From NCBI RefSeq assembly GCF_020509005.1, contig NC_063018.1:4588001-4652000 (forward strand): a DNA stretch of 64,000 nucleotides, read 5' to 3'. A model generated the notes under the pieces. That model did no database searches, was not told the DNA's origin, and saw only the letters and a list, made by a program, of their open reading frames with translations. Shown in pieces: positions 16,414-54,611 of the stretch. Within the stretch, counting starts at the first letter, position 1. Each line of letters begins with the position of its first letter. The DNA is from Fulvia fulva (lineage: Eukaryota; Ascomycota; Dothideomycetes; Mycosphaerellales; Mycosphaerellaceae). A program made the position numbers and the translations under genes.

Positions 16414-16707
16414 CTACCCCCCCTTAAGACACGTTTGTCTTAAAGCGTATATCCTTAAACCTTTCTTAATACGTATATAAAGGCTTTATTATCCTCTATA
16501 TCTATCGTGTCCTCTAGTAGCTTAACTATATAAGCTTATATTATTAAATCTAGTCCTTCGCGGTTAGCGCCGTTAGCCTATCTCTTACTATAGCTAATAT
16601 AGCCGTTACGAGCGTATAAAGGTATAGCCGAGCTAGTATTCTTACTTAGATAATCACTAGAAGTAGTTACTAGTATAACCCTCCTATTATAGCCTATAGT
16701 AATATTA
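16414..16707 (-). pseudogene. Extreme 3' end of G4 pol, separated from the rest by an inversion
   Basis: The minus-strand frame entering at 16707 is open except for a few TAA/TAG codons and ends in a Gly-rich run into the polypurine tract, as many gypsy pol frames do. It continues in frame from the chromodomain-bearing fragment at 46864-47545 if the intervening segment is re-inverted and gypsy G3/G2 plus one copy of the 5-base duplication are removed. On its own it would not be recognisable. Confidence 0.6.
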
Positions 16708-16768
16708 TATTAGGGCGAGAGCCTAGCCTATAAGATATAAGAGTAAAAGCGAGAATATAGGTATAAAG
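16708..16768 (-). repeat. G3 3' LTR, distal part
   Basis: Reverse complement of the 3' end of the G1 LTR. tattagggcgagag corresponds to TGTCAGGGCGAGAG with two RIP-type changes. It is cut by Cop-A at 16769. Confidence 0.9.
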
Positions 16769-17003
16769 TGTTAAGATGTAGCATCTCAAAGGGAGTCAAC
16801 AATCAGGAAGTGATCTGGCAGCCTGAGGCATTCACAATGACTCAGCTTGTAGGGAGATACCTTCTCTCCCCTTTAGCTTAGATAGACATCCAACACAATC
16901 AACATATTGGTTCCTGATATATTGCTGCATGCTCGTGCTATTAGTCAGTTGAAGATTGATCTCTTACTCCACTCCGCTGCCACCTACCCGTACCTGTTTA
17001 ACA
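16769..17003 (+). repeat. Cop-A 5' LTR
   Basis: 235 bp, TGTTAAGATGTAGCATC ... CCTGTTTAACA, with the terminal TG...CA dinucleotides of LTR elements. Confidence 0.97.
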
Positions 17004-17021
17004 GGTTATGAGCCCGGGTTT
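17004..17021 (+). promoter_or_regulatory. Primer-binding site, half-tRNA (initiator Met) type
   Basis: ggttatgagcccgggttt-like sequence lies immediately after the LTR. Its complement (AACCCGGGCTCATAACC) contains the CAT anticodon flanked by stem bases and resembles the anticodon arm of an initiator tRNA, not a tRNA 3' end. Priming from an internal tRNA fragment is known for Drosophila copia. The same site follows the Cop-B and C3 LTRs. Confidence 0.65.
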
Positions 17022-17451
17022 ATGCAGGAATAAGAGCAACCTATATCAGTACAGGTTACTTGTATCCCTTGCTATCGTAGCAGAAAACATCTGGGAATCA
17101 GAAGTCTACCCCGTCTATCCTATCAAGGAGCTTAGTTCGATACTAAGTGATAGGTAACCCAGACAAGGACTCTGTGCGGCTTACTCAAAGCCAATACCTT
17201 GAAGATACTCTGTAGGCAGAACTGCATCGAGATACTATCAAGAAGGACTTCAAGTAAGTCATTTGAAGCTCTGCTAGGAGAGACAGACCTGTGTCCTAGC
17301 CCCGAGACCTCACACCGCTCCTTCTTTACTTTACCAAGCAGGCCTTGGTATCCACACCTACGAACTTTCCCATTCTACACCAGAAGCCTCAGCAGGATCT
17401 GAGCCACCACCTTGGAACATACACACCTTGTTTCATTACATCCAATTTATT

Positions 17452-20400
17452 ATGGATTCATACCAAGAGAAGACAGAGGAGAAGGGAGGCAAAATCCCAA
17501 TTCTTGGGAGGGACAATTGGAAGAGATGGTTCAACCTTCAGAGATACAAGATGGAGAGCCAATCAGCATTCTTTGCAATTGATGACCTAATGGAAGTGTC
17601 TTTTGACAACATCAAGGGCAAGACTCTGAAACTCCAAGAAGAGGCTACAACCAAAGAGATCCTCAATACGCCAACATGGACAAGACACAATGCAGTATGC
17701 AACTTCAGTATCCTTAGTAGGATCACAGAAGAAGATGAATTTGAGCTTGAGGGCTCATGTGAATCTGGAAGAGCTGCTGAGAAGTGGGTGTATCTCTGGA
17801 ACAAGTATAGCCAGGTGCTACCAACCCATGCACATGAGCTCATAAAGCAATTTGTGACCTTTGAGATGAGTGAAGAGTTCACCATCAGATCTGCATGGAC
17901 ACACCTGGTTTCTCTTGGAAAAAGGATTGCTGATGTTGACCCAGAGGGTCAGCATTACAGGAAAGCTGATGTGAGGATGACCCAGCTCTTAAGCTCACTG
18001 CCACCTGACTACCATGTAGCCAGGGATACTATCATGGCTCAGCCAAAGATGGATCATGAAAGGACCTTAAAGATCCTTGAAGCTCAAGAAGCCAGGTTGG
18101 ATCCCTCTAAGGCTGAGTATGGCATAGCAGCCACCTAGGTCAAGCCCTCAGGTCTAGCAAGACCACTCTCCTGCCTTCTCTGTGAGAAGGATCATCTGAT
18201 CAAGGACTGCCCTAGTTTGCCTGAGGCAAGAAAGGTCCTTAGATCTCATTCCCAACCACCATCTTCCCAGAATACAACACATGTCAAGAAGAAGAGAACT
18301 CCACCACCCACTTCAAGGAGGACACCAAGAGAGAAGTCCTCTATGGAAGAACTTAAGAAAATGGTGAAGAAACTCAGCTCTGACATGCTGTCACTCCAGA
18401 AGAACCAGGCCCAGTCTTATACCTCTAAAGCAAAGAAGACTGGAAAAGGTTTCTCCGCCCAAGAGTCACCATGCAGCTCATCCCCAGAGACAATGTCTGA
18501 TGATGATGAGTATGATGAAGTGGCTCACTCAACTGCAGAAGTCCAAGGCAAGTTCCCCTCGTCAGAGTGGTTACTTAACTCCTGTGCTTCATCCCATATG
18601 ACTGACCAAAGCTGCCTCTTTAGATCTATGACTCCCTTGACAAGGAAGAAATGGATCAAAGTGGGAGGTGGGTTTTTATTGGCCACTCATATTGGGAATG
18701 CAGAGATGAGTGGGAGAGCTGGCAGAAAAGTTGTTTTGGAAGATGTCCTGCTTGTACCCAAGCTAGGAGTGAACCTGGTTTCATGGAACCAGTTTAGCAA
18801 GCAGTTTGGTGTGCAACCTCCATCATTTTCTCTTGTTTCCCCCTCTGGTAAGACTGTTGTCCAGACAAAGCTCCTTGGGGGGGTTCCATTCATTGATGAG
18901 ATTTCTCCTCTCCTACAAGAACGGGCACATTACTCATCATGTGCACCACCAATGGAGAATGCCTTTGTGACTGCTCAATCAGAGACCGACCTGAAGCAGT
19001 GGGAGCTTTGGCATAGAAGATTTGCACACTTTGGGAAGAATTTGCTCCAGAATCTTCACAAGGTAACAGACTTGAAAGAACCCATTCCTATCCCTAAGGA
19101 TGGCTTTCACCAGTGCAGAGTATGCTCAATAGCAAAGATGAAGAAGTACAAAGGCAAAGTTACAGAGAGAAGACCTGAAAGACTTGCCCTTGTATCTATT
19201 GACATATGTGGCCCACTACCAATCTCAAGACTAGGATTCAAATACTGGCTTGAGATTGTTGACAACTTCTCTAGGAAGAAGTGGACCTTTCCTTTTAGGA
19301 AAAGAGAAGATGCTCCAGTTGCTCTCCAGAACTGGAAGATCAAAGCAGAGAGGAAATCATCAGCGCAGCTGAAAGCAGTAAGACTTGACAATGCAAAAGA
19401 ACTTATTGCATTAGTGAAGCAGTGGGAGAAGGATTTGGGGATTGGGCTCGAGCCGACTGAGGCATACAACTCTCTACAGAATGGACCAGTTGAGAGGTCA
19501 ATACAAACCTCAGAGGACTCTATAAGGGCAATGCTTGAAGAGGCTAAAATGCCGGTTGAATTTTGGCCTGAAGCACTAGAGGCCCAAACTTATATGAGGA
19601 ACAAACTGCCAAATGGCCCAGATTACGATGGGTTCAAGGTTTCACCAGATGAGGCTTTTGATGGTATCAAACCGACCATCAACCATTTGAAAGTTTGGGG
19701 ATGCAAAGCTGTTGTCTATATGGACACAAGATCCCAACCTCAATGGGCAAGAAGTGACAAGCTAATGAATAGGGGTAAAGAAGCAGTGTTTATTGGGTAT
19801 GTTGAAAACACAGCTAAAGCCTGGCTCTTTTGGGAACCAGACATGAGAGCTGTTAAACAACACACACATGCAGACTTCTTTGAGGACCAGCCTGGAGGTG
19901 ATATGGGTCTCAATGTTCCAACATTGAATCTACCAAGCAGTGCACCAGCTAGGAAGCCCTTAGGAAGGCCGAGGAAGAACGTATCCTTAGGACAATCTAC
20001 CTACCATTCAGGCGTCCATCAGAGCCCCCCCGAAATAGATCAGCCAATTGAGAGCCCTAAAGTCGCTCAGCCGAGAAAGCTGTTTGTGCAACTTCCCCAG
20101 CCTCCGGAGAACGTAGGGGAATTTCAGAAAATCGATCAGCCAATTGAGAGAAGCTCCCTAGATCCCCAGGAAATAGACGTTACCAGGTCACAAGTGACGG
20201 TCCCTAAATCATCCCTTGGAAAGAGAAAGGCTGACTATGATGTTGAGGGCTATGACATGAAACAGAAAGCCCCAAGATCCATGGTCCCTAAGCCCGAACT
20301 AACCACTGAAGTGGGAGAAGCAATGGACCTCTCAGAGAACCTTGCTGCTTTTCACCAAGCTTTCTTTGCAGCCATGCAATCAGTGGACAGTTCAATACCA

Positions 20401-22082
20401 TGGGATAGCGAATTCCTGGAAGAAGTTGAGGAAATGGCCTTTGCAGCAACTGTAGAAGCCATTGCATACAAGCAAGAGGTCCCAATTCCAAAATCCTACA
20501 AGTTGCTGTGAATGACAAGAAATGGGGACATCTTTGGAAGGAAGCAATCCAAAAGGAACTAGATGCTCTACAGAGTAACAACACCTGGGAAAATTCTGTT
20601 CCACCAAAAGGAGCAAATCTGGTTACATCAAGATGGGTCTTTGATATTAAGAGAAGCATTAGTGGAGCTATTGAAAAGTTCAAGGCTAGACTAGTTGCAA
20701 GGGGCTTCTCACAGAAGTTTGGTGTTGACTTTATGGAGACATTTGCACCTACAGTAAGACAGGACACCCTTAGGGTGTTTATGGCTATTGTGTGTAAGAA
20801 GGATCTTCATCTTCACCAAGTGGATGTGAACAATGCATTCACAGAAAGCACCCTCCATGAAGACATCTTCATGTTACCACCACCAGGAGTTGAGCTTCCA
20901 CCAAACATGGTGTTCAAAATCCTCAAAAGCTTGTATGGACTTAAGCAAGCAGCTAGAGATTGGAATCAACTCTGTGTGTCAAAGCTCAGAGAGATTGGAT
21001 TCACACAGTCAGAAGTGGATCCATGCCTACTTATCCATAAGAAGAGGGAGATCATAATCCTTATACATGTGGATGACATTCCAATTGCTGCACCAAAGTT
21101 GACAGATGTTCTCTGGTTCAAAAGAGAACTTGGCAAGATCTTCAAGATCAAAGATCTAGGTGAACCTGAAAAGATCCTTGGCATGAGAGTCACAAGGGAC
21201 AGGAAGAGAGGAATCCTGAAACTTGACCAAGGACACTTTGTTAGGGACAGCCTAGCCAAGATGGGAATGAACCATGAGAAGGCAGCACCTACACACTCAC
21301 CCATGGACAGCTATGAGGCCCTCAAACCTTCAAGCCACATGGATGAGAGGTGTGACAAGGCAGAGTACCAGAGTATTAATGGTACTTGGATGTGGCCAGC
21401 AACAATCACAAGGCCAGACATTGCTTTTGCCCTAGGAAGGATGAGCTCATTTGTGAGTGACCCATCCACCTACCACATGAAGGCTTTGAAGAAGATCACT
21501 AGGTACCTAAGATCATACCCTGATCTAGGACTTCAGTTCTCAAAGTCTGGAAAAGGACACCTTATTGGATACTGTGATTCTGATTATGCAATGGACAAAG
21601 CAGACAGAGTCTCAATCCTTGGGTATGTCTTCTTCCTCTGTGGGGCACCAGTTTCTTGGATGAGCAAGAAGCAAAAGTCTGTAGCAACATCCACAATGGA
21701 GGCTGAATACATGGCTATGAATGCATGTGCGAAGCAGTCCCAATTCCTAGCTTCACTGCTGAGGGAAATGGATTGTCCAGAGTTAGTGGGAGACTGTTCC
21801 CATCAACCAAGAATCACTGGAAACCAGGAGACTGTATCAAATTTGAGACCAGTCCAATTAAGAGGTGACAATCAAGCTGCCCTCACCCTAGTGAAAGATG
21901 CACATGTTCATGACAAGTCGAAGCACATTGACATTGCCTATAACGCTGTTAGGAAACTTTGGTGGAGGAGGCTTATTGCTGTTGAGTACACCCCAACCTC
22001 TGAGATGGTTGCAGACGGGTTTACAAAACCAAAGACTGGTCCACACTTCCAGAGGTTTGTAAGCCAGCTGAACCTGTCATAA
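17452..22082 (+). pseudogene. Cop-A gag-pol polyprotein with one stop and one frameshift
   Basis: A single reading frame from ATG 17452 to TAA 22080-22082, interrupted by TAG at 18136-18138 and by a one-base deletion near 20503. Gag: N-terminal region, then a zinc knuckle C-x2-C-x3-H-x4-C (CLLCEKDHLIKDC) just after the stop. Protease box at about 18577 reads NSCASSHM, where copia elements have DSGA; Asp to Asn removes the catalytic residue. GAG-pre-integrase zinc site (WHRRFAHFG ... CRVC) at about 19005-19130. Integrase core: Asp in SIDICGP, Asp in RLDNAKE, Glu in GPVERSIQT (about 19195-19500). RT: 20590-21300 with LIHVDD at 21061-21075, where relatives have YVDD. RNase H: from about 21570 (YCDSDYA) to the C-terminus. 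The start was chosen as the first ATG giving the GRDNW motif context. Stop, frameshift and altered protease suggest it is not functional on its own. Confidence 0.93.
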
Positions 22083-22138
22083 AAAGGTCCAAGTACTATT
22101 GACAGGAAGTGAGCAGACTGTAACCTCCCATACGAGAT

Positions 22139-22147
22139 GAGTGGGAG
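22139..22147 (+). promoter_or_regulatory. Cop-A polypurine tract
   Basis: gagtgggag immediately before the 3' LTR. An identical gagtgggag precedes the Cop-B 3' LTR. It is the expected site for plus-strand priming. Confidence 0.75.
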
Positions 22148-22382
22148 TGTTAAGATGTAGCATCTCAAAGGGAGTCAACAATCAGGAAGTGATCTGGCAG
22201 CCTGAGGCATTCACAATGACTCAGCTTGTAGGGAGATACCTTCTCTCCCCTTTAGCTTAGATAGACATCCAACACAATCAACATATTGGTTCCTGATATA
22301 TTGCTGCATGCTCGTGCTATTAGTCAGTTGAAGATTGATCTCTTACTCCACTCCGCTGCCATCCACCCGTACCTGTTCAACA
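22148..22382 (+). repeat. Cop-A 3' LTR
   Basis: Matches 16769-17003 except for three C/T differences near the end (catccaccc and CCTGTTCAACA). Confidence 0.97.
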
Positions 22383-23005
22383 TAAAGTATAGATATAAAG
22401 GGTATAGTATAATTACTATATAAACGAAAGACAAAGAAAGTAAGAGAGGCCTAGGGAAGGCTAGATACTTATACGCGACCCTCGCAAGTACGTGTCCCCG
22501 TATTAATAGCGCTAATTCGTACAAAGCCGCGCTTAGTAGCTTTGCTCAAAACCTTAGTCTAACCTGCCCTACGTTCCGAGTCTTCTACGTGCTTTTTCTA
22601 GGGTCTAGCGTAGTTGCGGGTACTCGCGGGAGTACCGTAAGTTATATAGTTACGAGCCGAAGTAAATCTATTAAGGGTTAGTAGAGTAGTGAATTTAGAG
22701 GGCTAGGTCCCGTAGTAAATATTACGGGGTATATGATTCTTAGCGCTTATATAGATAGATAGATTATTCATTCGCCTGTTTTAGTGCCCTTTGGCCTATA
22801 TAGGTCTCTCGCTATTTAGGTCTATTTATGTAGGTAGGAAACCTAATTAGCGGATAAAAACCTTCTCGTCTTTGCCCTCCTCGTTCTTTCCTATCTTGTC
22901 CTAGCGCTTATATACTAAGCTAGACTTTCACTTCTTAACGACTTCTAAGTACTCTAAGGCTCTTCTATCCCTACCTTCTATATACTCTATAGGGAGACTA
23001 TAATA
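22383..23005 (-). repeat. G3 3' LTR, proximal part
   Basis: Continuation of 16708-16768. It ends gactataata (ancestral GACTATGACA) at 23005, next to the element's polypurine tract (reverse complement of gtagctcccccgaa). Without the LINE scrap and the duplications the LTR is about 518 bp, matching the 519-520 bp of other copies. Confidence 0.9.
22754..22901 (-). mobile_element. 5'-truncated copy of the Tad-like LINE (3' end only)
   Basis: 148 bp that match the 3' end of the LINE at 56593-56740: a (TATC)n tail on the minus strand, then the aatga...caggcg / ctatataggtc blocks. It is flanked by a perfect 13-bp target duplication, tagcgcttatata (22741-22753 and 22902-22914), within the G3 LTR. 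Severe 5' truncation and long duplications are typical of target-primed reverse transcription. It has been RIP-mutated since. Confidence 0.88.
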
Positions 23006-26000
23006 GTAGCTCCCCCGAATAAAGCTAAGTTCCTACGAAGCCGTAGTAGTTCTATATATCGAGGATGTTCAGCTTTAGTACTAGGCCTAGGCCTAATGTT
23101 ATAGTCGATATACTATTAGTAAGCCCCGTCGAAGAGCTTAGATTCGAAAAGCCTACCGATATTAACCTCTAGGCCGTCTACGCGGGCGTAGTATTCTTCG
23201 ATTACTTAACGATTAAAGATTATATATTAGATAGGTTCCTATAAGGTATCCTACTTAGAGAAACCTTACTATTCGACTTTATACTTAATCGGCGGTAGCC
23301 CTTTAACTTCGTTAGGCTCTACGCGGATTCCCCGGATCTTACGGACGGTATAGTCGTTAGAAGGTAGGTTAATAGGCTCGTCGACTTCTACTTTATTGGG
23401 AGGACCTAGTATATCTTAGTTTTGGTTCGGGAATAAGTCCTTAGCCGACGGCCGAAGGCGTACGGGATAGAAGACGTCGTAGATTTTTATGTTCGTAGGA
23501 AGAGCTAGACGGTAGGCGTATAAACTAATACGCTCGGTGATCTTCAAAGGACCTAGGTTCTTCTAGCTTAGCTTCTTAGAGGGGCGGTCCGTCTTAGTGT
23601 TCTTAGAGTCAAGGTAGACTATATCGCCTACTTAGTAGTTAGGAGCTAGCTAGCGACGACGATTAGCTTGATCCTCGTAGATTGCTTATACGTATACTAT
23701 CTCGTCGTAGACTTCTTTATAGATCTATAAGAGTATAGTAGCGAACTCGTCTACTACTTACTCGTTTACGTCTTTAGTAGGCGGGAGAGGCTCTTCTAGT
23801 TCTATACCTATACAAGGGTAGTAACCTCTTGTAGTATAGAAGGGAGAGTAGCTAGTAGTCTCCGAGTCCTAGTTACGAGTAGCGAACTCTACCGTAGGGA
23901 TATACTAAGGCCAATCCTTCTAGTAGTAGTCGACGAAGTAACGAAGGACCTACTTAAGGATAGCGTTCGTAATTTCGGTCTAGCCGTTAGTCTATAGCTA
24001 AAAACTAGTCGAGAGGCTATACTTAATGCCTAGGATAGCACATAGACGCTTCTAGAAGTACGAGATGAACTAGGAGCCTCTAGTAGAGGTAATACTGTCC
24101 GGGAGGCCTTCAAAGCACTAGACGAATTCGTAGAATAGGCGAGTAGTCTCCTTTACGGTTATACTCTAGTACGGGATTATATACCGGTCCTTAGAGTAAC
24201 GGTCTATAATTACTAGAAGGGCCTTTACCTTTACGCCGCTAAAGGTCTTACCGTAAGGAAGATCGGTAATAAAGTCTATAGTAATATACTTCTACGGACG
24301 ATTAGGAGCCGGGAGAGGGTATAAGAGACTATAGGGGCGGTAGCGGTTAGCTTTAGCTCTTCGGTAAGTAGTATAGTTTAGTACGTAGCGGCGGACGTCC
24401 TTCTAGGAATACGGCTACTAGTAATACCTAGCGAGGAGCTTATAGGTCTTAGCTACGCCTAGGTGACCCCTAGAGGCGGAGTCGTAGACGATTTAAAGAA
24501 TCTTAGCTCGGATATTAGAGCCTTTGGGCTACGGTACGTAAAGCTTCTTACGGAAGTAGACGACACCTTCCTAGAGCTCGTACTTAGATAGCGAGAAGCC
24601 CGGGAATATCCTCGCGCTAGATTTAAGGGCCTAAACTAACTCTTAGGCGACTAGGTCGGTATCGTACGCTATTCGTACTCGCGCTATAATACCTTTAGGT
24701 TGCTCCTTATTATTAAACCCCTTAAAATCTAATTCGGATAAGCCTTCGGTCGTTACTAAGCCCTCTTTATTATCGTTCAAGTCCTTAGCGTCCGAGGCGT
24801 ATTCTTTAGGCTCGGATTCGTTATCACTCTTGTTAAGGTAGGTAGGAGCGAGCACGAGAGTAGTAAAGGAAGCGGCGAGCGTAGGCTAGCCGTTTAATAG
24901 GTACTCTCGAAGCTCGGAAGAGAGGTTATACTCTTTAATAGCTTGTTGCTCTACGATTTGCTAGCCCCCTCTTCGATCAACTAGAGAGTTACTAGGGCGG
25001 CGGGTAAGGGCGTCGGCTATCGAGTTAGCCTTACCGGGCGTATATAAGATTATAAAGTTGAACCGGGAGAGGAACTCGCTCTAGCGGGCCTAGCGACGAT
25101 TAAGTAGCTTACTCTTTATAAAGTAGACGAGGTTCTTATAGTCGGAGCTTACTTAGACGGGTATAGTAGAGCCTTTAAGCTCGGGGCGCTACTCTTTAAA
25201 AGCGTTAACGATAGCGAGAAGCTCCTTATTGTAGATCTCGTAGTTATACTCCGTAGCGGTCATCTTCTTAGAGAGGAAGGCGATAGGTAACTAGGGAGAT
25301 TCAGGCGAGCGGCGTTATAGTAGGATACCGCCTACTATACCGTCGGATACGTTAGTCTCTATACGGGTCTCTAGTTCGAAATCGAAGTGGTATAGGAGCG
25401 GGTTCTTAATAAACTTCGCTTTAAGTAAGTCAAAAGCCTCCTAGCATTTGTCGGTCTAGGTAAACTTCTTACCCTTACGCGTAAGCTTCGTTAAAGGGCG
25501 TACTACGCCCGAGAATACGTAGATAAAGCGGCGGTAGAAGTTAGTAAAGTCTAGGAAACCCTAGACCTCCTTAACGTTCGTAGGAGTATCCTATTCGACA
25601 ATAGCGTCGACCTTCTCTTAGTCTATCTTAATGCCGTCTACGGTAATAATTAAACTAAGGAACTTGACTTCGGTCTTCTTAAACTCGTACTTGTCGATAT
25701 TGAGCTATAAGCCGGCGTCTACGAGCTTCTAAAGGACCTTATAGATGTGCTCGCGGTACTCCTCCTTAGTCTTGCTATAGACTAGGATGTCGTCGATGTA
25801 GGTAGTATAGAACTGATCGAGGAACTCCTAAAGGATATCGTTAATAAAGTTCTAGAAGGTACTAGGCCCGTTATAGATACCGAAGGGTATAACGAGCGAC
25901 TCGAATAGCCCGTAGCGAGTACGGAAGGCTATAAGATACTCGTATCCTTCTACTATTCGTAACCTATTAAACGTAGCGATAACATCGAGCTTAGTGAAGT

Positions 26001-27466
26001 ACTTAGCCTTAGAGAGGCGCTCGAGCGTCTCCTAAATTAACGGTATTAGGTAGCGGTTCTTCTTTATAATAGCGTTTAAGCCTCGGTAGTCTACGTAGAA
26101 GCGTAGGCTACCGCCGGGCTTCTTAACGAATATAACGGGACTACTAGCGCTAGAACGGCTCGCTCGAATAAACCCCTTCTTTAGGTTCTCTTCGAGATAT
26201 CCCTTAAGGACGATAAGCTCTTCTCGGGATATAGAATATAGCGGTCCGAACGGTATCTCTATACCTTCTTCTAGCTTAATCTTATAGTCGTAAGGGCGAT
26301 AAGGAGGCAGCTCGTCTACGGCTTTAGTATCGAATACGTAGAGGATATAGTATACCTAAGGAGGGACCTTTATAGTAGGGTCGGTAGGTATACGCTTCTT
26401 ATCGAGCTTCTCGAGGGCGATGTCGATATCGCGGAGAGAGGCGGTAAAGACTTAAGCTTTAGGCTACTTAGTAGTAGTAGTAAAGGTAGCGGCGTTTACC
26501 TAGAAGATCTTAGTATACTTAGGACCGCGCTAAGGCGGCGGAGAAGGCGGAGGTACCGGAGGAGCTTCTAGAGGGAAGCTAATAGTAAGGGAAGTCTAGT
26601 CGATAATAGGTTAGTATCGTCTAAACTAGTAGAGGCCGAGGATAAACTTCTAATACGGTAGGGACGTAAGGAAGCTAGTGATCGACATACGCTTACCTTC
26701 GAGAGTAATTAACGTATATATATGTCAGGGCGAGAGCCTAGCCTATAAGATATAAGGGTGAAAGCGAGAATGTAGGTGCGAAGTGTAGATACAAAAGGGT
26801 ATAGTATGATTGCTACACAAAACAAAAGACGAAGAAAGCAAGAGAGGCCTAGGGAAGGCTAGATATTTATACGCGACCCTCGCGAGTACGTGTCCCCGCA
26901 TCAACAGGGCTAACCCGTACGAAGCCGCGCTTAGTAGCTTTGCTCAAAACCTTATTCCAACCTGCCCTACGTTCCGAGTCTTCCACGTGCTTCAAGGTTT
27001 GGTAGAGGGGTGAATTTGGAGGGCTGGGTCCCGTAGTGAATGTTACGGGGCATGTGATTCTTAGCGCTTATATACTAAGCTAGACTGTCACTTCTTAACG
27101 ACTTCTAAGCGCTCTAAGGCTCTTCTGTCCCTACCTTCTGTACACTCTATGGGGAGACCATAACAATATAATATAAGTAATCTTACTAGTAGTAGTCTCC
27201 GTACCGTTAAAGAGTTTAAGGGTACGAGGGTACTTTAGTTCCTAGGGTTCGCGGTTAAGAGAGGTCGCGAGTTTATAGTCTATAAAAGACTCGCCTAGTA
27301 CGCTAGTATCTATAAGAGTAAGATTAGAAGAAGAGAGTTTCTTTAAGCCGATATTTATATTCGTAACGAACGGTTTATAAGCGTAGTCCTTACCCGTCTC
27401 GTCGTATAGGTCTAGCTATACTATATTGATCCTTAACTTCTTTCCTCTCTTTACTTTCGGTAAACG
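23006..27466 (-). pseudogene. G3 pol, RIP-inactivated, with nested solo LTR
   Basis: Collinear with G1 pol when reverse-complemented: protease region (about 27330), RT (about 26240-25800), RNase H (about 25350), integrase (about 24450-23600) and a chromodomain-like C-terminus (about 23420-23180). Numerous TAG/TAA stops. The longest clean piece (24855-24643, an acidic spacer between RNase H and integrase) is identical in protein sequence to the matching piece of G2 (51914-52126) and differs from G1 at many positions. The solo LTR 26723-27165 interrupts the protease-RT spacer. Confidence 0.85.
26723..27165 (-). repeat. Solo LTR of the G1 family, short (443-bp) variant, nested in G3
   Basis: Reverse complement of a G1-type LTR (TGTCAGGG ... 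CCATAACA on the plus strand), flanked by a perfect atata duplication (26718-26722, 27166-27170). Compared with the 520-bp G1 LTR it lacks 77 bp in the middle. It is only lightly mutated, whereas the surrounding pol is saturated. An equivalent solo LTR with the same deletion sits at the same position in G2 (49604-50046). Confidence 0.95.
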
Positions 27467-29556: not shown

Positions 29557-29558
29557 TA

Positions 29559-30691: not shown

Positions 30692-30693
30692 TA

Positions 30694-34375: not shown

Positions 34376-34378
34376 TTA

Positions 34379-41404: not shown

Positions 41405-41423
41405 GGTTATGAGCCCGGGTTAG
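41405..41423 (+). promoter_or_regulatory. Cop-B primer-binding site
   Basis: ggttatgagcccgggttag directly after the LTR; same half-tRNA type as in Cop-A. Confidence 0.65.
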
Positions 41424-44800: not shown

Positions 44801-45663
44801 CTGTAAAGCTTGATCAAGGACACTACATCCAAACTAACCTTGCCAAGATGGGCATCTCTCCAGAGAAGGCCACACCCACACTCTCACCTATGGACAGCTA
44901 TGAGGATCTGAGACCTTCAGCTACTATGGATGAGAGGTGCAACAAACAGGAGTACCAGAGTTGCAATGGTACCTGGATGTGGCCAATGACAATGACAAGG
45001 CCAGACCTTGCTTTCCCCCTTGGAAGAATCAGCTCATATGTTGCTGACCCTTCAAAGCAACATCTTAGAGCCTTGAAGAAACTCTCCAGATATCTGAGAT
45101 CATACCCAGACCTGGGCTTGATGTACAGAAGAGGAGGAGGTATTCTCCAGGGATACTCAGATTCTGATTATGCCATAGACAAGGCAGACAGAGTCTCAAT
45201 CCTTGGACATGTGTGGTTCCTTTGTGGATCACCTGTGTCCTGGATGAGTAGGAAGCAGAAGTCTGTTGCCACATCAACAATGGAGGCTGAGTTCATGGCC
45301 ATGAATGCAGCAGCTAAGTAGTCACAGTTTCTTGCTGCAGTCCTTAGAGAGATGAGGTGTCCTGACCTGGTTGGAGAGTGTTCATTCCAACCTAGGATGA
45401 AGGCAAGCAGTACTGTTGATGAGCTGAGACCCGTGAAGCTTATGGGTGACAACCAAGCAGCTTTGACCTTTGTCAAAAATGCCCATGTCCATGACAGGTC
45501 AAAGCATATTGATGTGGCATACTACTATGTCAGGAATCTCTAGTGGCAAAAGAAGATTGCAGTGGATTACTGCCACACAAAGGACATAGTTGCTGATGGG
45601 CTGACTAAGCCCCTCAATGGCCAGCAGTTTCAAAACTTTGTGAGGCAGCTCTAGCTTGTATAA
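41900..45663 (+). pseudogene. Cop-B gag-pol, deleted and carrying TAG stops
   Basis: ATG 41900 follows a TATATATAAAA run. Recognisable in order: gag N-terminus (PILTKDN then a stop where Cop-A has Trp); gag C-terminal part (42145-42423); zinc knuckle CHLCHGDHVIKDC (42541-42579); protease box LLDSCASSHM (42856-42885), keeping Asp but with Cys where Gly is usual; GAG-pre-integrase (43330-43450); and integrase up to about 43740 (SIDICGP and RSDGAREI). A deletion of about 0.7 kb then removes the Glu-containing part and joins straight to the linker (VQLPQPP). RT follows with TYVDDIPIAAP (44653-44685), then RNase H (45155-45610). In-frame stops, all TAG: 41966, 42421, 43229, 43328, 44548, 44593, 45319, 45541 and probably 45652. 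Frameshifts lie near 42100-42145 and 42720-42815. It cannot make a full polyprotein. Confidence 0.92.
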
Positions 45664-45697
45664 GGGATTGTTTGAGACCTTCTGACCTGAGTGGGAG

Positions 45698-45915
45698 TGT
45701 TGAGAATATGCAGGTCATAGGGTCAACATTGAGTGCTTAGGGGGATTAGTAATCAGGGCTTGCTAGTCAAGTCCTGAGTACAGCTGTCCCTCCTGAAACA
45801 CCTACACCAACACCGGCGATACTGTATGTAGATACACGCTATCCCATTAGGTCCTTCTTCGTCTTTGGTGTGATCCGCCGTCTTCCACTGCTGCGCAACT
45901 CGTACCTGTTTAACA
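45698..45915 (+). repeat. Cop-B 3' LTR
   Basis: Identical by eye to 41187-41404. Confidence 0.97.
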
Positions 45916-46171
45916 TAGGTAATAACTAAGCCGCTTTAATACTTATTAAAGATGCCTATATATATAAAAGGTTAAAGCATATTAATGTTATATATAACTA
46001 TGTTAGACATCTCTAGTAGTAGAAAAAGATTGTAGTAGACTACTACTATATAAAGGATATAGCTACTAATAGGTTAATAAAGCTCCTTAATAGCTAGTAG
46101 TTCTCAAACTTTATAAAATAGCTCTAGCTTACGTAAAGGGATTATAGGAGACTATATAGCCTAAGTAGGAG

Positions 46172-46391
46172 TGTTAAGAACATATAGGCCGTAGGACAAG
46201 TATATAGGTATAGGTGTGTTATATAACTAGATCACGTAACTAGGGTTACTAGCCTATAGGCTAGTAAATAGTATCTATCTATACTAATACCGGCGATACT
46301 ATATGTAGTTACACGCTATCCTATTAGGTCCTTCTTTGTCTTTTGTATAATTCGCCGTCTTCTACTACTACGTAACTCGTCCTATTTAATA
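46172..46391 (+). repeat. Copia C2 3' LTR
   Basis: TGTTAAGAACATATAGG ... CTATTTAATA. Slightly shorter than the C1 and C3 LTRs because of a small internal deletion near 46265. Confidence 0.85.
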
Positions 46392-46503
46392 TATACTAAT
46401 ACTAGCGATACTATATATTGATATACGCTATCCTATCAGGTCCTTCTCCGTCTTTCGTATAATCCGCCGTCTTCTACTACTACGTAACTCGTAACTATTT
46501 AAT
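46392..46503 (+). repeat. Tandem partial copy of the copia LTR 3' end
   Basis: About 112 bp repeating the last part of the preceding LTR (from atactaatactagcgatac to ctatttaata). Its mutations differ from those of the full LTR (ttgatatacgct, tatcaggtcc), so it is an independent or long-diverged copy. Confidence 0.8.
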
Positions 46504-46861
46504 AGTATACTAGCCTTTCATAGCGGGAAAACTTGGAAATCTAGCTCGAGTAAATACTTAAGTATTACCCTCTCTTCTAGCTCTATAAGCTTCTTCGAAT
46601 TAGGCTCGTAGTCACCCCGAGGAGGTATTCTATTTAATTAATACCTTAGTATAGTTCGAGATACGTCGTATATCTTTATAGTAAGTCGATTCGTAATTAT
46701 CGCGTCGCGTTTCGTAGCCTAGATAGCTAAGGTTAGTTTAGTCTCGTTTAAAGATAATATACGCTATAATAGTAGTTATATAACTATATCTATAGAAGTA
46801 GTATAGTTCTTAGTAAAAGTAGCCCGCTTAGTAGTATAGTCCGCTCGGTAGTAAAGTACAT
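46504..46861 (-). pseudogene. pogo/Fot1-like transposon, 5' fragment
   Basis: The reverse complement matches 29559-29915 of the pogo element: terminal repeat ending gtaaagtacat, a TA (46862-46863), then the psq-type DNA-binding region. It is truncated at the copia LTR, so only the transposon end and the transposase N-terminus remain. Confidence 0.88.
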
Positions 46862-46863
46862 TA

Positions 46864-47545
46864 TAAGCTATTACGCTACGACTAGGCACTATAAGTAAAC
46901 AATACTAATATATACCGTATAGACCCTCCGCGATACTAGGTAGGCGACCGCATCTATATTAATACTAAGAACTAGAAGTTCTCTAGACCCGCGAAGAAGC
47001 TAGACGTTAAGTAGTTCGGCCTAGTAACTATTATAGCTATATTAGGTAAGGACGCTTACCGTATTACGTTACTAGACACTATCCGCGTATATAACTCGTT
47101 CTACTTAAACCTACTTCGCCTAGTATACCCGGAAGATAATACGCTACCCCCCGGATCGAGGTTACCGATAATACTAGAAACACTTTCTAGGCCTAGATAG
47201 TAGAGCGTATTCTAGATTTAAAGCCTAAGGGTAGAGGTATTACTATACTAGTGAAATAGTAAGGATATCGTAAGCCGATATTAGAGCCCGCGAGCGTAAT
47301 ATATAAGGATATACCGAAGGTAGTCGTAGATTTTAAGTACTATAACTAAGACAAGTCTATACTAGTTAACTTCTATCCGCTATAGGACTAGGTACTAAAC
47401 GAGACGCTACGCGACCTTAATAGACACTTAGCCAAAGAAGATATATACGCTATAGATCTAGCGTCTTAGGTAACTTTATTTATACGACTACTTCGTAGTA
47501 CCGGCGATATAGTTCTACCTCCGACTAACTATACGCCTTATAATA
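46864..47545 (+). pseudogene. G4 pol C-terminus: integrase GPF box and chromodomain
   Basis: The plus-strand frame gives RYDQ-like helices, then VGDRIYINTKN, RPAKKLDVK, AYRITLLDTI and SFYLNLLRLVYPEDNTLPP, the classic integrase C-terminal (GPY/F) module of Ty3/gypsy elements. A frame change near 47180 is followed by VVERILDLKPKGRGITILVK.. GYRKP.LEPASVIYKDI, a chromodomain. The frame then runs on to 47545 and, after re-inversion, continues into 16702-16414. It belongs to a different gypsy family from G1-G3. The pogo fragment interrupts it on the left. Confidence 0.82.
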
Positions 47546-48064
47546 TATTATAGTCTCCCTATAGAGTATATAGAAGGTGGGGACAGAAGAGCCTTAGAGT
47601 GCTTAGAAGTCGTCAAGAAGTGAAAGTCTAGCTTAGTATATAAGCGCTAAGAATTATATACCCCGTAACATTTACTACGGGACCTAGCACTCTAAATTTA
47701 CTACTCTACTAACCCTTAATAGATTTACTTCAGCTCGTAACTATATGACTTACGGCACTCCCGCGAGCACCCGCGACTACGCTAGACTCTAGAAGAAGTA
47801 CGTAGAAGACTCGGAACGTAGGGCAGGTTAGAATAAGGTTTTAAGTAAAGCTACTAAGCGCGGCTTCGTACGGGTTAGCCCTATTAATACGGGGATACGT
47901 ACTCGCGAGGGTCGCGTATAAGTATCTAGCGTTCCCTAGGCCTCTCTTACTTTCTTCGTCTTTCGTTTTATATAGCAATTATACTATACCCTTTATGTCT
48001 ACACTTCGTACCTATATTCTCGCTTTTACTCTTATGTCTTATAGGCTAGGCTCTCGCCCTAATA
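47546..48064 (+). repeat. G2 5' LTR
   Basis: 519 bp; tattatagtctccc (ancestral TGTCATAGTCTCCC) to cgccctaata. Confidence 0.92.
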
Positions 48065-48067
48065 TTA

Positions 48068-49318
48068 CGAAAGACTAACAAACCGTCAACTACTCGAGTT
48101 ATCCTTATAGGTGACTACGCTACTAATAGAGGTGTCAACCTTAACAACTAAGACACTCTATTTCACTTTAGTAAGTAGGCTAATATCCCCTTCTCGAACG
48201 CCGCTACCTTCGGTACCTAGGCAAACGCTAACCCCGATACCGCCTACGCTCTTATAAACCGTACCGTCTCCTCTTTTCGCGAGACCGCCTAGTAGGTCGA
48301 GTAAGCAAATAACTAAGTAGTATACCTTTAAGGTATTATAAACACCTTCTAGAACCTCGTACCGTACGCCGACGATAACCGCCGCTAGTACTTCTCTAAG
48401 AAGGTTAACGATCTAGATAAGTTCGACGGTAATAAGAGTAAGTTCGAGGCATTTAAGACATAGCTCACTATTAAGCTATTAGCTAATACCGACCACTTTC
48501 CGTAAGAGAAGGACAAGGTTACGTACGTCTTCTCCCTCCTTTAGGGAGACGCCGCGGCTTAGGTATAATACTATATCGATAACGCTACGTAGACTATCGG
48601 CTACCCGGACGTCCTTACCTTAATATAGGACCTCCGTACTACCTTTAGTGATCTAGACCGTAGAGCTACCGCCTAGAACGCTATCTATAACCTCCTCTAG
48701 AAGAACAAGAGCTTTGCCGAGTACCTCGCGGCCTTTAACCGCGGTATTAGGTTTACCGGCTATAACGAAGAGACTAAGAAGAGCACTCTCCGCCGTAGCT
48801 TATTAGTAGAGCTTCTTCGAGCCCTCGAGGATAAGGACGTCGGTACTATAAGCTTCCGTAAGCTCGTCGAGACCTACTAGCGCCTCGACTCTAATATAAA
48901 ATATACCGCCTCTCTCCTTACTTCCCGTTCTTAAGGTCGTTAGCCTCGTAGTCCCGGAAGCTACTTCGCTACTCTACTAGGCGCCGCCGCTCCTACGGCT
49001 CTCCCTCCCGTCTCTATAGGTAATACTATAGATCTTAGCGCTAGTACCGCTGTCCCTCGAGTCTAGGGCCTCGTTAACGGTAAGCTTACTCCCGAAGAGA
49101 AGCTTCGCCGTCGCTAGGCCGGACTCTATACCTACTACGGCAGTCTAGGCTATATTGTAGTTAACTATCCGTAGCTCGCTACCCGTAACGCCCGTAATCC
49201 GATTCGCGGCGCTATCGGCGCTATCGAGCCTACTCCTACTACTCCCGCTAAGTAGGAAAAAGCCTAGGTCTTCCTTATCGACGCGATAAAGACTAAGAAT
49301 AACGTTTACCGAAAGTAA
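48068..49318 (+). pseudogene. G2 gag, RIP-inactivated
   Basis: Collinear with G1 gag, ending TAA 49316-49318. About twice as many stops as G1. The zinc knuckle has lost most Cys codons (about 49125-49170). Confidence 0.87.
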
Positions 49319-52300
49319 AGAGAGGAAAGAAGTTAAGGATCAATATAGTATAGCTAGACCTATACGACGAGACGGGTAAGGACTACGCTTATAAACCGTT
49401 CGTTACGAATATAAATATCGGCTTAAAGAAACTCTCTTCTTCTAATCTTACTCTTATAGATACTAGCGTACTAGGCGAGTCTTTTATAGACTATAAACTC
49501 GCGACCTCTCTTAACCGCGAACCCTAGGAACTAAAGTACCCTCGTACCCTTAAACTCTTTAACGGTACGGAGACTACTACTAGTAAGATTACTTATATTA
49601 TATTGTTATGGTCTCCCTACAGAGTGTACAGAAGGTAGGGACAGAAGAGCCTTAGAGCGCTCAGAAGTCGTTAAGAAGTGATAGTCTAGCTTAGTATATG
49701 AGCGCTAAGAATCACATGCCCCGTAACATTCACTACGGGACCTAGCCCTCTAAATTCACCCCTCTACCAAACCTTGAAGCACGTGGAAGACTCGGAACGT
49801 AGGGCAGGTTGGAATAAGGTTTTGAGCAAAGCTACTAAGCGCGGCTTCGTACGGGTTAGCCCTGTTGATGCGGGGACACGCACTCGCGAGGGTCGCGTAT
49901 AAATATCTGGCCTTCCCTAGGCCTCTCTTGCTTTCTTCGTCTTTTGTTTTGTGTAGCAATCATACTATACCCTTTTATATCTGCACTTCGCACCTACATT
50001 CTCGCTTTCACCCTTATATCTTATAGGCTAGGCTCTCGCCCTGACATATATATACGTTAATTACTCTCGAAGGTAAGCGTATGTCGATCACTAGCTTCCT
50101 TACGTCCCTACCGTATTAGAAGTTTATCCTCGGCCTCTACTAGTTTAGACGATACTAACCTATTATCGACTAGACTTCCCTTACTATTAGCTTCCCTCTA
50201 GAAGCTCCTCCGGTACCTCCGCCTTCTCCGCCGCCTTAGCGCGGTCCTAAGTATACTAAGATCTTCTAGGTAAACGCCGCTACCTTTACTACTACTACTA
50301 AGTAGCCTAAAGCTTAAGTCTTTACCGCCTCTCTCCGCGATATCGACATCGCCCTCGAGAAGCTCGATAAGAAGCGTATACCTACCGACCCTACTACAAA
50401 GGTCCCTCCTTAGGTATACTATATCCTCTACGTATTCGATACTAAAGCCGTAGACGAGCTGCCTCCTTATCGCCCTTACGACTATAAGATTAAGCTAGAA
50501 GAAGGTATAGAGATACCGTTCGGACCGCTATATTCTATATCCCGAGAAGAGCTTATCGTCCTTAAGGGATATCTCGAAGAGAACCTAAAGAAGGGGTTTA
50601 TTCGAGCGAGCCGTTCTAGCGCTAGTAGTCCCGTTATATTCGTTAAGAAGCCCGGCGGTAGCCTACGCTTCTACGTAGACTACCGAGGCTTAAACGCTAT
50701 TATAAAGAAGAACCGCTACCTAATACCGTTAATTTAGGAGACGCTCGAGCGCCTCTCTAAGGCTAAGTACTTCACTAAGCTCGATGTTATCGCTACGTTT
50801 AATAGGTTACGAATAGTAGAAGGATACGAGTATCTTATAGCCTTCCGTACTCGCTACGGGCTATTCGAGTCGCTCGTTATACCCTTCGGTATCTATAACG
50901 GGCCTAGTACCTTCTAGAACTTTATTAACGATATCCTTTAGGAGTTCCTCGATCAGTTCTATACTACCTACATCGACGACATCCTAGTCTATAGCAAGAC
51001 TAAGGAGGAGCACCGTAAGCACATCTATAAGGTCCTTTAGAAGCTCGTAGACGCCGGCTTATAGCTCAATATCGACAAGTACGAGTTTAAGAAGACCGAA
51101 GTCAAGTTCCTTAGTTTAATTATTACCGTAGACGGCATTAAGATAGACTAAGAGAAGGTCGACGCTATTGTCGAATAGGATACTCCTACGAACGTTAAGG
51201 AGGTCTAGGGTTTCCTAGACTTTACTAACTTCTACCGCCGCTTTATCTACGTATTCTCGGGCGTAGTACGCCCTTTAACGAAGCTTACGCGTAAGGGTAA
51301 GAAGTTTACCTAGACCGACAAATGCTAGGAGGCTTTTGACTTACTTAAAGCGAAGTTTATTAAGAACCCGCTCCTATACCACTTCGATTTCGAACTAGAG
51401 ACCCGTATAGAGACTAACGTATCCGACGGTATAGTAGGCGGTATCCTACTATAACGCCGCTCGCCTGAATCTCCCTAGTTACCTATCGCCTTCCTCTCTA
51501 AGAAGATGACCGCTACGGAGTATAACTACGAGATCTACAATAAGGAGCTTCTCGCTATCGTTAACGCTTTTAAAGAGTAGCGCCCCGAGCTTAAAGGCTC
51601 TACTATACCCGTCTAAGTAAGCTCCGACTATAAGAACCTCGTCTACTTTATAAAGAGTAAGCTACTTAATCGTCGCTAGGCCCGCTAGAGCGAGTTCCTC
51701 TCCCGGTTCAACTTTATAATCTTATATACGCCCGGTAAGGCTAACTCGATAGCCGACGCCCTTACCCGCCGCCCTAGTAACTCTCTAGTTGATCGAAGAG
51801 GGGGCTAGCAAATCGTAGAGCAACAAGCTATTAAAGAGTATAACCTCTCTTCCGAGCTTCGAGAGTACCTATTAAACGGCTAGCCTACGCTCGCCGCTTC
51901 CTTTACTACTCTCGTGCTCGCTCCTACCTACCTTAACAAGAGTGATAACGAATCCGAGCCTAAAGAATACGCCTCGGACGCTAAGGACTTGAACGATAAT
52001 AAAGAGGGCTTAGTAACGACCGAAGGCTTATCCGAATTAGATTTTAAGGGGTTTAATAATAAGGAGCAACCTAAAGGTATTATAGCGCGAGTACGAATAG
52101 CGTACGATACCGACCTAGTCGCCTAAGAGTTAGTTTAGGCCCTTAAATCTAGCGCGAGGATATTCCCGGGCTTCTCGCTATCTAAGTACGAGCTCTAGGA
52201 AGGTGTCGTCTACTTCCGTAAGAAGCTTTACGTACCGTAGCCCAAAGGCTCTAATATCCGAGCTAAGATTCTTTAAATCGTCTACGACTCCGCCTCTAGG

Positions 52301-53781
52301 GGTCACCTAGGCGTAGCTAAGACCTATAAGCTCCTCGCTAGGTATTACTAGTAGCCGTATTCCTAGAAGGACGTCCGCCGCTACGTACTAAACTATACTA
52401 CTTACCGAAGAGCTAAAGCTAACCGCTACCGCCCCTATAGTCTCTTATACCCTCTCCCGGCTCCTAATCGTCCGTAGAAGTATATTACTATAGACTTTAT
52501 TACCGATCTTCCTTACGGTAAGACCTTTAGCGGCGTAAAGGTAAAGGCCCTTCTAGTAATTATAGACCGTTACTCTAAGGACCGGTATATAATCCCGTAC
52601 TAGAGTATAACCGTAAAGGAGACTACTCGCCTATTCTACGAATTCGTCTAGTGCTTTGAAGGCCTCCCGGACAGTATTACCTCTACTAGAGGCTCCTAGT
52701 TCATCTCGTACTTCTAGAAGCGTCTATGTGCTATCCTAGGCATTAAGTATAGCCTCTCGACTAGTTTTTAGCTATAGACTAACGGCTAGACCGAAATTAC
52801 GAACGCTATCCTTGAGTAGGTCCTTCGTTACTTCGTCGACTACTACTAGAAGGATTGGCCTTAGTATATCCCTACGGTAGAGTTCGCTACTCGTAACTAG
52901 GACTCGGAGACTACTAGCTACTCTCCCTTCTATACTATAAGAGGTTACTACCCTTGTATAGGTATAGAACTAGAAGAGCCTCTCCCGCCTACTAAAGACG
53001 TAAACGAGTAAGTAGTAGACGAGTTCGCTACTATACTCTTATAGATCTATAAAGAAGTCTACGACGAGATAGTATACGTATAAGCAATCTACGAGGATCA
53101 AGCTAATCGTCGTCGCTAGCTAGCTCCTAACTACTAAGTAGGCGATATAGTCTACCTTGACTCTAAGAACACTAAGACGGACCGCCCCTCTAAGAAGCTA
53201 AGCTAGAAGAACCTAGGTCCTTTGAAGATCACCGAGCGTATTAGTTTATACGCCTACCGTCTAGCTCTTCCTACGAACATAAAAATCTACGACGTCTTCT
53301 ATCCCGTACGCCTTCGGCCGTCGGCTAAGGACCTATTCCCGAACTAAAACTAAGATATACTAGGTCCTCCCGATAAAGTAGAAGTCGACGAGCCTATTAA
53401 CCTACCTTCTAACGACTATACCGTCCGTAAGATCCGGGGAATCCGCGTAGAGCCTAACGAAGTTAAAGGGCTACCGCCGATTAAGTATAAAGTCGAATAG
53501 TAAGGTTTCTCTAAGTAGGATACCTTATAGGAACCTATCTTATATATTATCTTTAGTCGTCAAGTAATCGAAGAATACTACGCCCGTGTAGACGGCCTAG
53601 AGGTCAATATTGGTAGGCTTTTCGAATCTAAGCTCTTCGACGGGGCTTACTAATAGTATATCGACTATAATATTAGGCCTAGGCCTAGTACTGAAGCTGA
53701 ACATCCTCGATATATAGAACTACTACGGCTTCGTAGGAACTTAGCTTTGTTTAGGGGGCTACTATTCTAGTCTCCCTATAG
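49303..53781 (+). pseudogene. G2 pol, RIP-inactivated
   Basis: Collinear with G1 pol. RT box YIDDILVYS is preserved at 50971-50997; the RNase H, integrase and chromodomain regions follow but are full of stops. The integrase Asp that is mutated to Asn in G1 lies in a differently mutated stretch here (about 52685-52700). The acidic spacer at 51914-52126 is open and identical to that of G3. It is split by the solo LTR 49604-50046. Confidence 0.88.
49604..50046 (+). repeat. Solo LTR, short (443-bp) variant, nested in G2
   Basis: TGTTATGGTCTCCC ... CTCTCGCCCTGACA with a perfect tatat duplication (49599-49603, 50047-50051). It has the 77-bp internal deletion after aaaccttga, as in the solo LTR of G3, and lies at the same site. 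Lightly mutated. Confidence 0.95.
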
Positions 53782-54280
53782 AGTATATAGAAGGTAGGGA
53801 CAGAAGAGCCTTAGAGTACTTAGAAGTCGTTAAGAAGTGAAAGCCTAGCTTAGTATATAAGCGCTAAGAATTATATACCCCGTAATATTTACTACGGGAC
53901 CTAGCCCTCCAAATTTACTACTCTACTAACTCTTAATAGATTTACTTCGGCTTGTAACTATATAACTTACGGCACTCCCGCGAGTACCCGCGACTACGCT
54001 AGACCCTAGAAGAAGTACGTAGAAGACTCGGAACGTAGGGCAGGTTAGAATAAGGTTTTGAGCAAAGCTACTAAGCGCGGCTTTATACGGGTTAGCCCTA
54101 TTAATACGGGGACACGTACTCGCGAGGGTCGCGTATAAGTATCTAGCGTTCCCTAGGCCTCTCTTACTTTCTTCGTCTTTCGTTTATATAGTAATTATAC
54201 TATACCCTTTATATCTATACTTAATACCTATATTCTCGCTTTTACTCTTATATCTTATAGGCTAGGCTCTCGCCCTAATA
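53763..54280 (+). repeat. G2 3' LTR
   Basis: 518 bp following a damaged polypurine tract (tttagggggctac); tattctagtctccc to cgccctaata. Confidence 0.92.
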
Positions 54281-54611
54281 ACTACTTATAGCCATAGCTA
54301 TACGTAGAGTGCTTGATCTTATTACTAGTATCGTGAACCCTATAGTTATTATAGAGCAATACTTCTACGCGCTTATAAAGCTTAAGTACTTCGAGTAGTA
54401 CGTAGTTACTAATATAGCAAGTTACGCTCTACTAGAAGTAACCGGTTAATACCTTATAATAACCCTTCCGGTTATTAGCGAGTTTACTACGTCGATGGTC
54501 GTGGCCCTAGTTCTACTAATTTATTCACGACTCGAAGAGTATAAAGACATCGTAGCGGCTACTATAGTTAAGCCACTCCTTAATACGGCCGTAATATACT
54601 TTAACTCGTAA
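54281..54611 (+). pseudogene. Unknown reading frame, second part (split by the inversion)
   Basis: The frame from the G2 edge is open to TAA 54609-54611 apart from a few TAG/TAA codons, giving hydrophobic helices (LLIAIAIRRVLDLITSIV near the start). It joins in frame to the minus strand of 29224-29556 after re-inversion. No family recognised. 54612-54661 holds nothing I can identify. Confidence 0.35.

What the first reader, a model, noticed from the sequence alone, without database searches (positions are those of the whole stretch)
16703..54285. Swapped target-site duplications show an inversion between two gypsy copies
Seen: G3 (minus) is flanked by tatta on the left (16703-16707) and gtagt on the right (29224-29228). 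G2 (plus) is flanked by taata (47541-47545) and actac (54281-54285). Neither element has a matching pair. If 29224-47545 is inverted, the left element has tatta/tatta and the right one actac/actac, both perfect 5-bp duplications as made by gypsy integrases. G3 and G2 are long inverted repeats of one family, so a crossover between them inverts the 18-kb middle. A chance match of ten bases is about one in a million.
Basis: partly seen in the sequence, partly recalled or inferred. Interest (0 to 1): 0.9.

Follow-up and report, generated by a model that had tools for sequence, protein, structure and literature searches.

The report
Fungal inversion between two retrotransposons
In the tomato leaf-mould fungus, an 18-kb stretch near a chromosome end was flipped by recombination between two facing copies of a jumping element; this is a known kind of event, shown here unusually clearly because unbroken versions of both original insertion sites survive elsewhere in the same genome.

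Summary
G3 (16708-29223, minus) and G2 (47546-54280, plus) lack matching target-site duplications (TSDs) of their own, but the TSDs match crosswise: TATTA/TAATA and GTAGT/ACTAC. Beyond those ten bases, the same genome holds empty-site paralogues: the two left flanks are contiguous, with the 5 bp present once, at 12 places; the two right flanks at 6 places plus one partial. Joins in the present order matched none of the 38 loci tested, apart from a one-sided match to the window itself. Contig lengths identify Cladosporium (Fulvia) fulvum Race 5, chromosome 7, 35-99 kb from the contig end. Published read lengths (mean 14.6 kb, about 125x) make an assembly flip unlikely. G2 and G3 also exchanged sequence after most of their RIP mutation: a 4.6-kb core differs by 7 bases and both carry the same nested solo LTR, while tested stretches at their ends differ by 3.5-6.6%. 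Best explanation: crossover with long gene conversion between inverted Ty3-type copies. Limits: the LTR-pair test for chimerism is inconclusive, and no reads or sister isolates were examined. It is a new example of a known kind (exchanged TSDs, as in Galileo).

The parts
16703..16707 (+). TATTA, TSD half of original site X (outer side of G3)
   Evidence: empty-site paralogues read TATTA in 7 of 12, CATTA in 4 of 12, 1 shifted by a gap
16708..29223 (-). G3: Ty3-type LTR retrotransposon copy, 12.5 kb including a nested Copia; one inversion breakpoint
16769..22382 (+). N: Copia-type element (LTRs about 235 bp, RVT_2; rve only below the curated cut-off) nested in G3's 3' LTR, own TSD TAAAG at 16764-16768 and 22383-22387
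26723..27165 (-). nested 443-bp solo LTR inside G3, at the same element position as in G2
29224..29228 (+). GTAGT, TSD half of original site Y (inner side of G3)
   Evidence: GTAGT in 5 of 7 paralogues, GCAGT in 1, 1 shifted by a gap
29224..47545 (.). inverted 18,322-bp segment; its three ORFs of 170 aa or more are all Copia-type, shorter or spliced genes were not sought
33856..40146 (+). G1: copy of the same family inside the segment, own TSD ATATA/ATATA; empty site at 63693-63697 (control)
41187..45915 (+). C: Copia-type element with 218-bp identical LTRs, TSD TAGGT both sides; empty site at 13784-13788 (control)
47541..47545 (+). TAATA, other TSD half of original site X (inner side of G2)
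47546..54280 (+). G2: second copy, other inversion breakpoint
48278..53332 (+). exchanged core of G2 (partner in G3 at 23437-28491): 7 differences in 4,612 bp outside the solo LTR
49604..50046 (+). nested solo LTR in G2, TSD TATAT; 11 differences from the G3 copy, 11 of 11 at CpA/TpG
54281..54285 (+). ACTAC, outer TSD half of original site Y (right of G2)

Best explanation
Two copies of one Ty3/gypsy-type element inserted separately and in opposite orientation: A into repeat X with TSD TATTA, and B into repeat Y with TSD ACTAC. Later, homologous recombination between them made a crossover inside the elements, with conversion over most of the internal region. The crossover inverted the 18.3 kb between them, so each present element has one end from A and one from B and the TSDs are exchanged. 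Shown: exchanged TSDs, both ancestral target sites (as paralogues), inverted near-identical arms, and a shared history of the core after RIP. Inferred: that crossover and conversion were one event, and that there was one flip rather than three or another odd number.
For: Empty-site paralogues join exactly the flanks the inversion model joins, with 5-bp overlap: 12 places for X, 6 plus 1 partial for Y, none for the present order among the 38 loci tested beyond a one-sided match to the window itself. Own TSDs are kept by 4 of 4 other LTR insertions checked in the window and by 18 of 20 sampled copies with both ends found. A neighbour, G4, has GTAAC on its left and the LTR end taken as its right end has GTAAC too (pairing inferred). 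Homology is long: 6.3 kb at 98.6%. Exchange between G2 and G3: only they carry the solo-LTR junction among 40 scored hits of 1,489 candidates; the core differs at 0.08% and 0.18% against 3.5-6.6% in the end stretches counted; for a 1.5-kb core stretch, of 40 scored copies of 1,084 candidates, only G3 and G4 reach 99% or more to G2 and the other 37 are at 95-96%.
Against: The LTR-pair test does not show the expected chimeras: crosswise pairs 92.9% and 93.6%, present pairs 95.2% and 91.5%, same-end pairs 93.4% and 95.4% (the G3 3' LTR only as a 366-bp piece). One transversion site groups the LTRs by present element. RIP at the same sites and conversion may blur this, but the test gives no support. 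The uninverted order was not seen in any isolate, and no reads were examined.
Confidence: 0.9

Rival explanations
1. Assembly artefact: the assembler flipped the 18 kb between the two inverted repeats; the real chromosome has matching TSDs.
For: The arms are long and 98.6% identical, and Race 5 was assembled from error-prone PacBio CLR reads (passage). A flip would give the same flanks. The Race 5 paper also reports three possible collapsed regions, places not seen by me, and Hi-C may not resolve 18 kb.
Against: Published mean read length is 14,638 bp at about 125x; read mapping gave only two possible structural variants, not backed by Illumina, and Hi-C showed no visible misassembly (section read). 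Under two assumed length distributions I expect 56-63 reads to span G2 and 32-42 to span G3 (a model, not read data).
Confidence: 0.05
2. Chance: the TSDs were lost or mutated and the crosswise ten-base match is accidental in AT-rich DNA.
For: The joint chance is 2.3e-5, not 1e-6.
Against: It cannot explain why hundreds of flanking bases are contiguous crosswise at 12 and 6 paralogous sites.
Confidence: 0.005
3. The inversion came from a crossover between G2 and G3, but the homogenised core is a separate conversion, before or after, perhaps one of several among G2, G3 and G4. (A variant of the best explanation, not exclusive of the inversion.)
For: G4, which shows no sign of having joined in the inversion, also shares the core at 99.5% over 2,581 bp. 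The ends look mosaic.
Against: One crossover with associated conversion is simpler for G2 and G3. Nothing here separates the two.
Confidence: 0.4
4. Rearrangement by breakage and end joining, or in several steps, with the elements at the breakpoints only by accident.
For: Repeat-rich chromosome end with other insertions nearby.
Against: Both junctions keep complete LTR ends and exact 5-bp words with no loss or gain of bases.
Confidence: 0.02

Closest known systems
Galileo-generated inversion 2z3 of Drosophila buzzatii (PMC2775673, passages seen)
   Same: Two copies in opposite orientation, exchanged TSDs, single target copy in the non-inverted sequence, nested secondary insertions with their own TSDs.
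   Different: Galileo is a DNA transposon with 7-bp TSDs and both copies were reported as chimeric, with non-inverted alleles at hand. Here the copies are LTR retrotransposons, the non-inverted state is seen in paralogous repeats, and chimerism is unresolved.
TE-linked rearrangements in C. fulvum (Avr9, Avr4E and Avr5 loss; Chr4/Chr10 translocation; PMC10823647, two sections and passages seen)
   Same: Same species, rearrangements at neighbouring TE copies, non-allelic homologous recombination proposed.
   Different: Those are deletions, a translocation and two large inversions (654 kb, 1.2 Mb) found between isolates. This is a small inversion read from one genome by its exchanged TSDs; it is not mentioned in what I saw of that paper.
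crapaud LTR retrotransposon of Podospora (PMC10787394, passages seen)
   Same: RIP-exposed LTR elements, 7 of 150 full copies with disparate LTRs put down to gene conversion or ectopic recombination; possible homogenising of internal regions.
   Different: The passages seen do not report exchanged TSDs or a chromosomal inversion; the one with the word 'inversion' concerns rearranged LTR copies.
Intrachromosomal inversions behind mesosynteny in Dothideomycetes (PMC3516569, passages seen)
   Same: Same class of fungi, inversions within chromosomes.
   Different: There the breakpoints are linked to simple repeats, here to two retrotransposon copies.

Membership tests
Inversion by ectopic recombination between TE copies (Galileo criteria) | Two homologous copies in opposite orientation at the two breakpoints | tested here: met
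   inverted arms 22899-29233 and 47537-53869, 98.6%
Inversion by ectopic recombination between TE copies (Galileo criteria) | TSDs exchanged between the two copies | tested here: met
Inversion by ectopic recombination between TE copies (Galileo criteria) | Single target copy in the non-inverted arrangement, without loss or gain of bases | tested here: met
   met in paralogous repeats, not in an allele: 12 places (X, one with a gap) and 6 plus 1 partial (Y)
Inversion by ectopic recombination between TE copies (Galileo criteria) | Both copies chimeric | tested here: inconclusive
   copies look mosaic, but LTR pairs do not sort crosswise
Inversion by ectopic recombination between TE copies (Galileo criteria) | Uninverted order present in sister strains | not testable with these tools
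   no other C. fulvum genome is held here; supplementary files could not be opened (0 look-ups allowed)
Ty3/gypsy LTR retrotransposon | LTRs with TG...CA ends and 5-bp TSD | tested here: met
   18 of 20 sampled copies with both ends found have the TSD, as does G1 in the window. G2 and G3 themselves have RIP-altered ends and exchanged TSDs
Ty3/gypsy LTR retrotransposon | Integrase zinc-binding domain (H2C2) in the 3' half of the internal region (its link to Ty3-type elements is recalled) | tested here: met
   in one other copy: PF17921 hit C7:1448038-1448205 (-) lies inside the G copy at about C7:1446175-1452465, whose ends and TSD GTTAT are intact (overlap found by eye in the 150 listed hits). 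Not shown in the window's copies: 0 of 7 short ORFs matched Pfam
Ty3/gypsy LTR retrotransposon | RT before integrase in the pol order | not tested
   window copies are RIP-damaged; frames were not read through

The most novel reading that the evidence does not exclude
Heavily RIP-mutated retrotransposons near a chromosome end stay active recombination substrates. G2, G3 and G4 exchanged sequence with each other after most RIP, the inversion is one product of that local exchange, and the segment may flip back and forth. A later light RIP episode then marks the exchange as older than the last sexual cycle of an almost asexual fungus.
Probability: 0.3. Interest if true: 0.55.

Novelty: new member of a known kind. 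Interest (0 to 1): 0.4.

Why it matters
The genome carries its own evidence of the ancestral order, so a rearrangement can be read without a sister genome. The method (mismatched TSDs plus paralogous empty sites) could be run over any repeat-rich fungal genome to count such events. The case also shows exchange between copies that RIP had already altered, which bears on whether RIP shields a genome from ectopic recombination. The five-isolate paper calls the patchy diversity of RIPed regions elusive (passage); conversion between neighbouring copies is a candidate contributor that can be tested. The segment holds no recognised host gene (ORFs of 170 aa or more only), so no phenotype is expected.

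Tried and rejected
LTR-pair comparison to prove chimeras: no support either way. Pfam on seven short ORFs of G1 and G2: 0 of 7 matched. Search for a partner of the G copy C4:5706586, which at first seemed to lack a TSD: it has CTATA on both sides once a 36-bp repeat of its LTR start is seen; the second pattern gave 4 places, one of them the LTR end that I take as the 3' end of G4. Of 39 G copies whose ends were fetched, 19 were dropped because both ends were not found. itself scored the 20 kept as 17 perfect, 1 with 4 of 5, 2 none; the correction makes it 18, 1 and 1, and the last one's right flank looks like a Copia LTR end (by eye). Target number explains the diverged solo LTR only in part: 11 of 47 CpA/TpG sites differ there against 5 of 73 in the core, Fisher p = 0.013. 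The stretch where G2 and G4 agree against G3 could be mosaic or RIP at the same sites, so the case does not rest on it. Paper search for swapped TSDs with LTR retrotransposons: 0 papers. Searches were judged by listing, except PMC3516569 and PMC10787394, of which I saw passages.

Full report
Setting. The window is bases 4588001-4652000 of contig C7 (4,686,795 bp) of a 67,169,167-bp genome in 14 contigs. The total and the lengths of Chr2, Chr5, Chr6, Chr7, Chr8 and Chr10 match Cladosporium (Fulvia) fulvum Race 5 (tables in PMC9453070); Chr3 differs by 192 bp. The stretch lies 35-99 kb from the contig end. Much of it is AT-rich and repetitive. Of 11 ORFs of 170 aa or more, 8 were compared with Pfam: 6 match retroelement domains (5 Copia-type, 1 LINE-type) and 2 match nothing. 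Shorter or spliced genes were not sought.

Observation. G3 spans 16708-29223 (minus) and G2 47546-54280 (plus). G3 is longer because a 5.6-kb Copia-type element N (16769-22382, TSD TAAAG) sits in its 3' LTR.

Empty sites. The decisive test uses the flanks, which are repeats with other copies in the genome. The left flank of G3 and the inverted left flank of G2 are contiguous, with the 5-bp word present once, at 12 genomic places: 9 without a gap over 396-399 bases, 2 without a gap over 259-293 bases, 1 with one gap. The word reads TATTA in 7 of 12, CATTA in 4 and is shifted by the gap in 1. The inverted right flank of G2 and the right flank of G3 are contiguous at 6 places without a gap, plus one partial match with a gap; the word reads GTAGT in 5 of 7, GCAGT in 1 and is shifted in 1. 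These counts come from 38 loci, each fetched by likeness to one flank; the flank right of G2 was not itself used as a query. Present-order joins: 0 spanning rows for G2, and for G3 one row, a one-sided match to the window itself. A control join gave 3 weak rows with 3 gaps and about 23 bases on the left side. So site X (TATTA) and site Y (ACTAC) each once held one element, and the present order is derived.

Controls. G1 (33856-40146, ATATA), C (41187-45915, TAGGT), N and the nested solo LTR (TATAT) have their own TSDs; for G1 and C an empty site exists inside the window. I fetched the ends of 39 other G copies: 19 did not give both ends and were dropped. Of the 20 left, 18 have perfect 5-bp TSDs, 1 has 4 of 5 and 1 has none (one copy corrected). 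A neighbouring copy G4 begins at C7:4666840 after GTAAC; an LTR on the same strand ends at C7:4680199 before GTAAC. I take these as the two ends of one element; the stretch between was read only up to 4674300.

Exchange between the copies. G2 and G3 differ by 34 of 519 bp in the 5' LTR, 12 of 213 just inside it, 1 of 1326 and 6 of 3286 in the two halves of the core, 11 of 443 in the nested solo LTR, and 15 of 424 before the 3' LTR. The longest identical run, 1,796 bp, was not reached in 10,000 shuffles. Against G1 the two share 409 changes, 345 of them C-to-T or G-to-A, 256 of those at CpA/TpG, the RIP signature. Of 40 scored hits (1,489 candidates) only G2 and G3 carry the solo-LTR junction. 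For a 1.5-kb core stretch, of 40 scored copies (1,084 candidates) only G3 and G4 are 99-100% identical to G2; the other 37 are at 95-96%. So the core was exchanged after most RIP. All 11 solo-LTR differences lie at CpA/TpG, as if a later light RIP round hit the less mutated LTR harder; target number explains this only in part (11 of 47 against 5 of 73).

What does not fit. If the elements were simple chimeras, the LTRs should pair crosswise. They do not: crosswise 92.9 and 93.6%, present pairing 95.2 and 91.5%, same end 93.4 and 95.4%. One transversion site groups them by present element. RIP at the same sites and conversion can blur this, so I call the test inconclusive. It also leaves open whether core conversion and crossover were one event; G4 shares the core without the inversion.

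Assembly. Published for Race 5: mean read 14,638 bp, about 125x, two possible structural variants from read mapping, not backed by Illumina, three possible collapsed regions, and no visible Hi-C misassembly (section read). Under two assumed read-length models I expect 56-63 reads across G2 and 32-42 across G3. An assembly flip is therefore unlikely, but no reads were examined.

Place among known things. Exchanged TSDs at inverted TE copies were used as evidence of ectopic recombination in Drosophila (PMC2775673, passages). TE-linked rearrangements are known in C. fulvum (PMC10823647), mismatched LTRs in a RIP fungus from crapaud (PMC10787394), and frequent inversions in Dothideomycetes (PMC3516569). 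I saw no report of this inversion; the searches were made, and supplements could not be opened, so it may be listed there. The family is Ty3/gypsy by LTR ends, 5-bp TSD and an integrase H2C2 domain in another copy with intact ends. The finding is a well-supported member of a known kind.

Noticed in passing
window 16769-22382: Copia-type element N (5.6 kb, LTRs about 235 bp) is close in size and LTR length to the Ty1/Copia element (5.6 kb, 240-bp repeats) that PMC10823647 links to Avr9 loss; sequences were not compared.
   Followed up: no
C7:4666840-4680199 (L051, L130): G4, a third neighbour with the same RIPed core at 99.5% but no solo LTR, interrupted after the position equivalent to 52627 in G2; GTAAC at both presumed ends.
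   Followed up: partly
window 41187-45915: Copia-type element C with 218-bp LTRs that are 100% identical, TSD TAGGT: a young insertion within the inverted segment.
   Followed up: partly
window 29559-30691: 1,133-bp insertion in this copy of repeat Y, absent at the same place from 7 of 7 other copies seen (L002-L008); a 365-bp stretch at its start resembles 46499-46863 inverted.
   Followed up: no
window 22754-22914: About 150-160 bp of extra sequence in G3's 3' LTR relative to G2's 3' LTR; origin unknown.
   Followed up: no
window 57407-60094 (-): LINE-type ORF of 895 aa (endonuclease and RVT_1) in a stretch of about 56% GC, so little RIPed.
   Followed up: no
C4:5705989-5706129 (L058): A G copy whose 5' LTR start is repeated at a distance of 36 bp, which first hid its TSD.
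   Followed up: yes
contig C3: Held length is 6,233,057 bp against 6,232,865 in the published table, while the other lengths compared agree.
   Followed up: no
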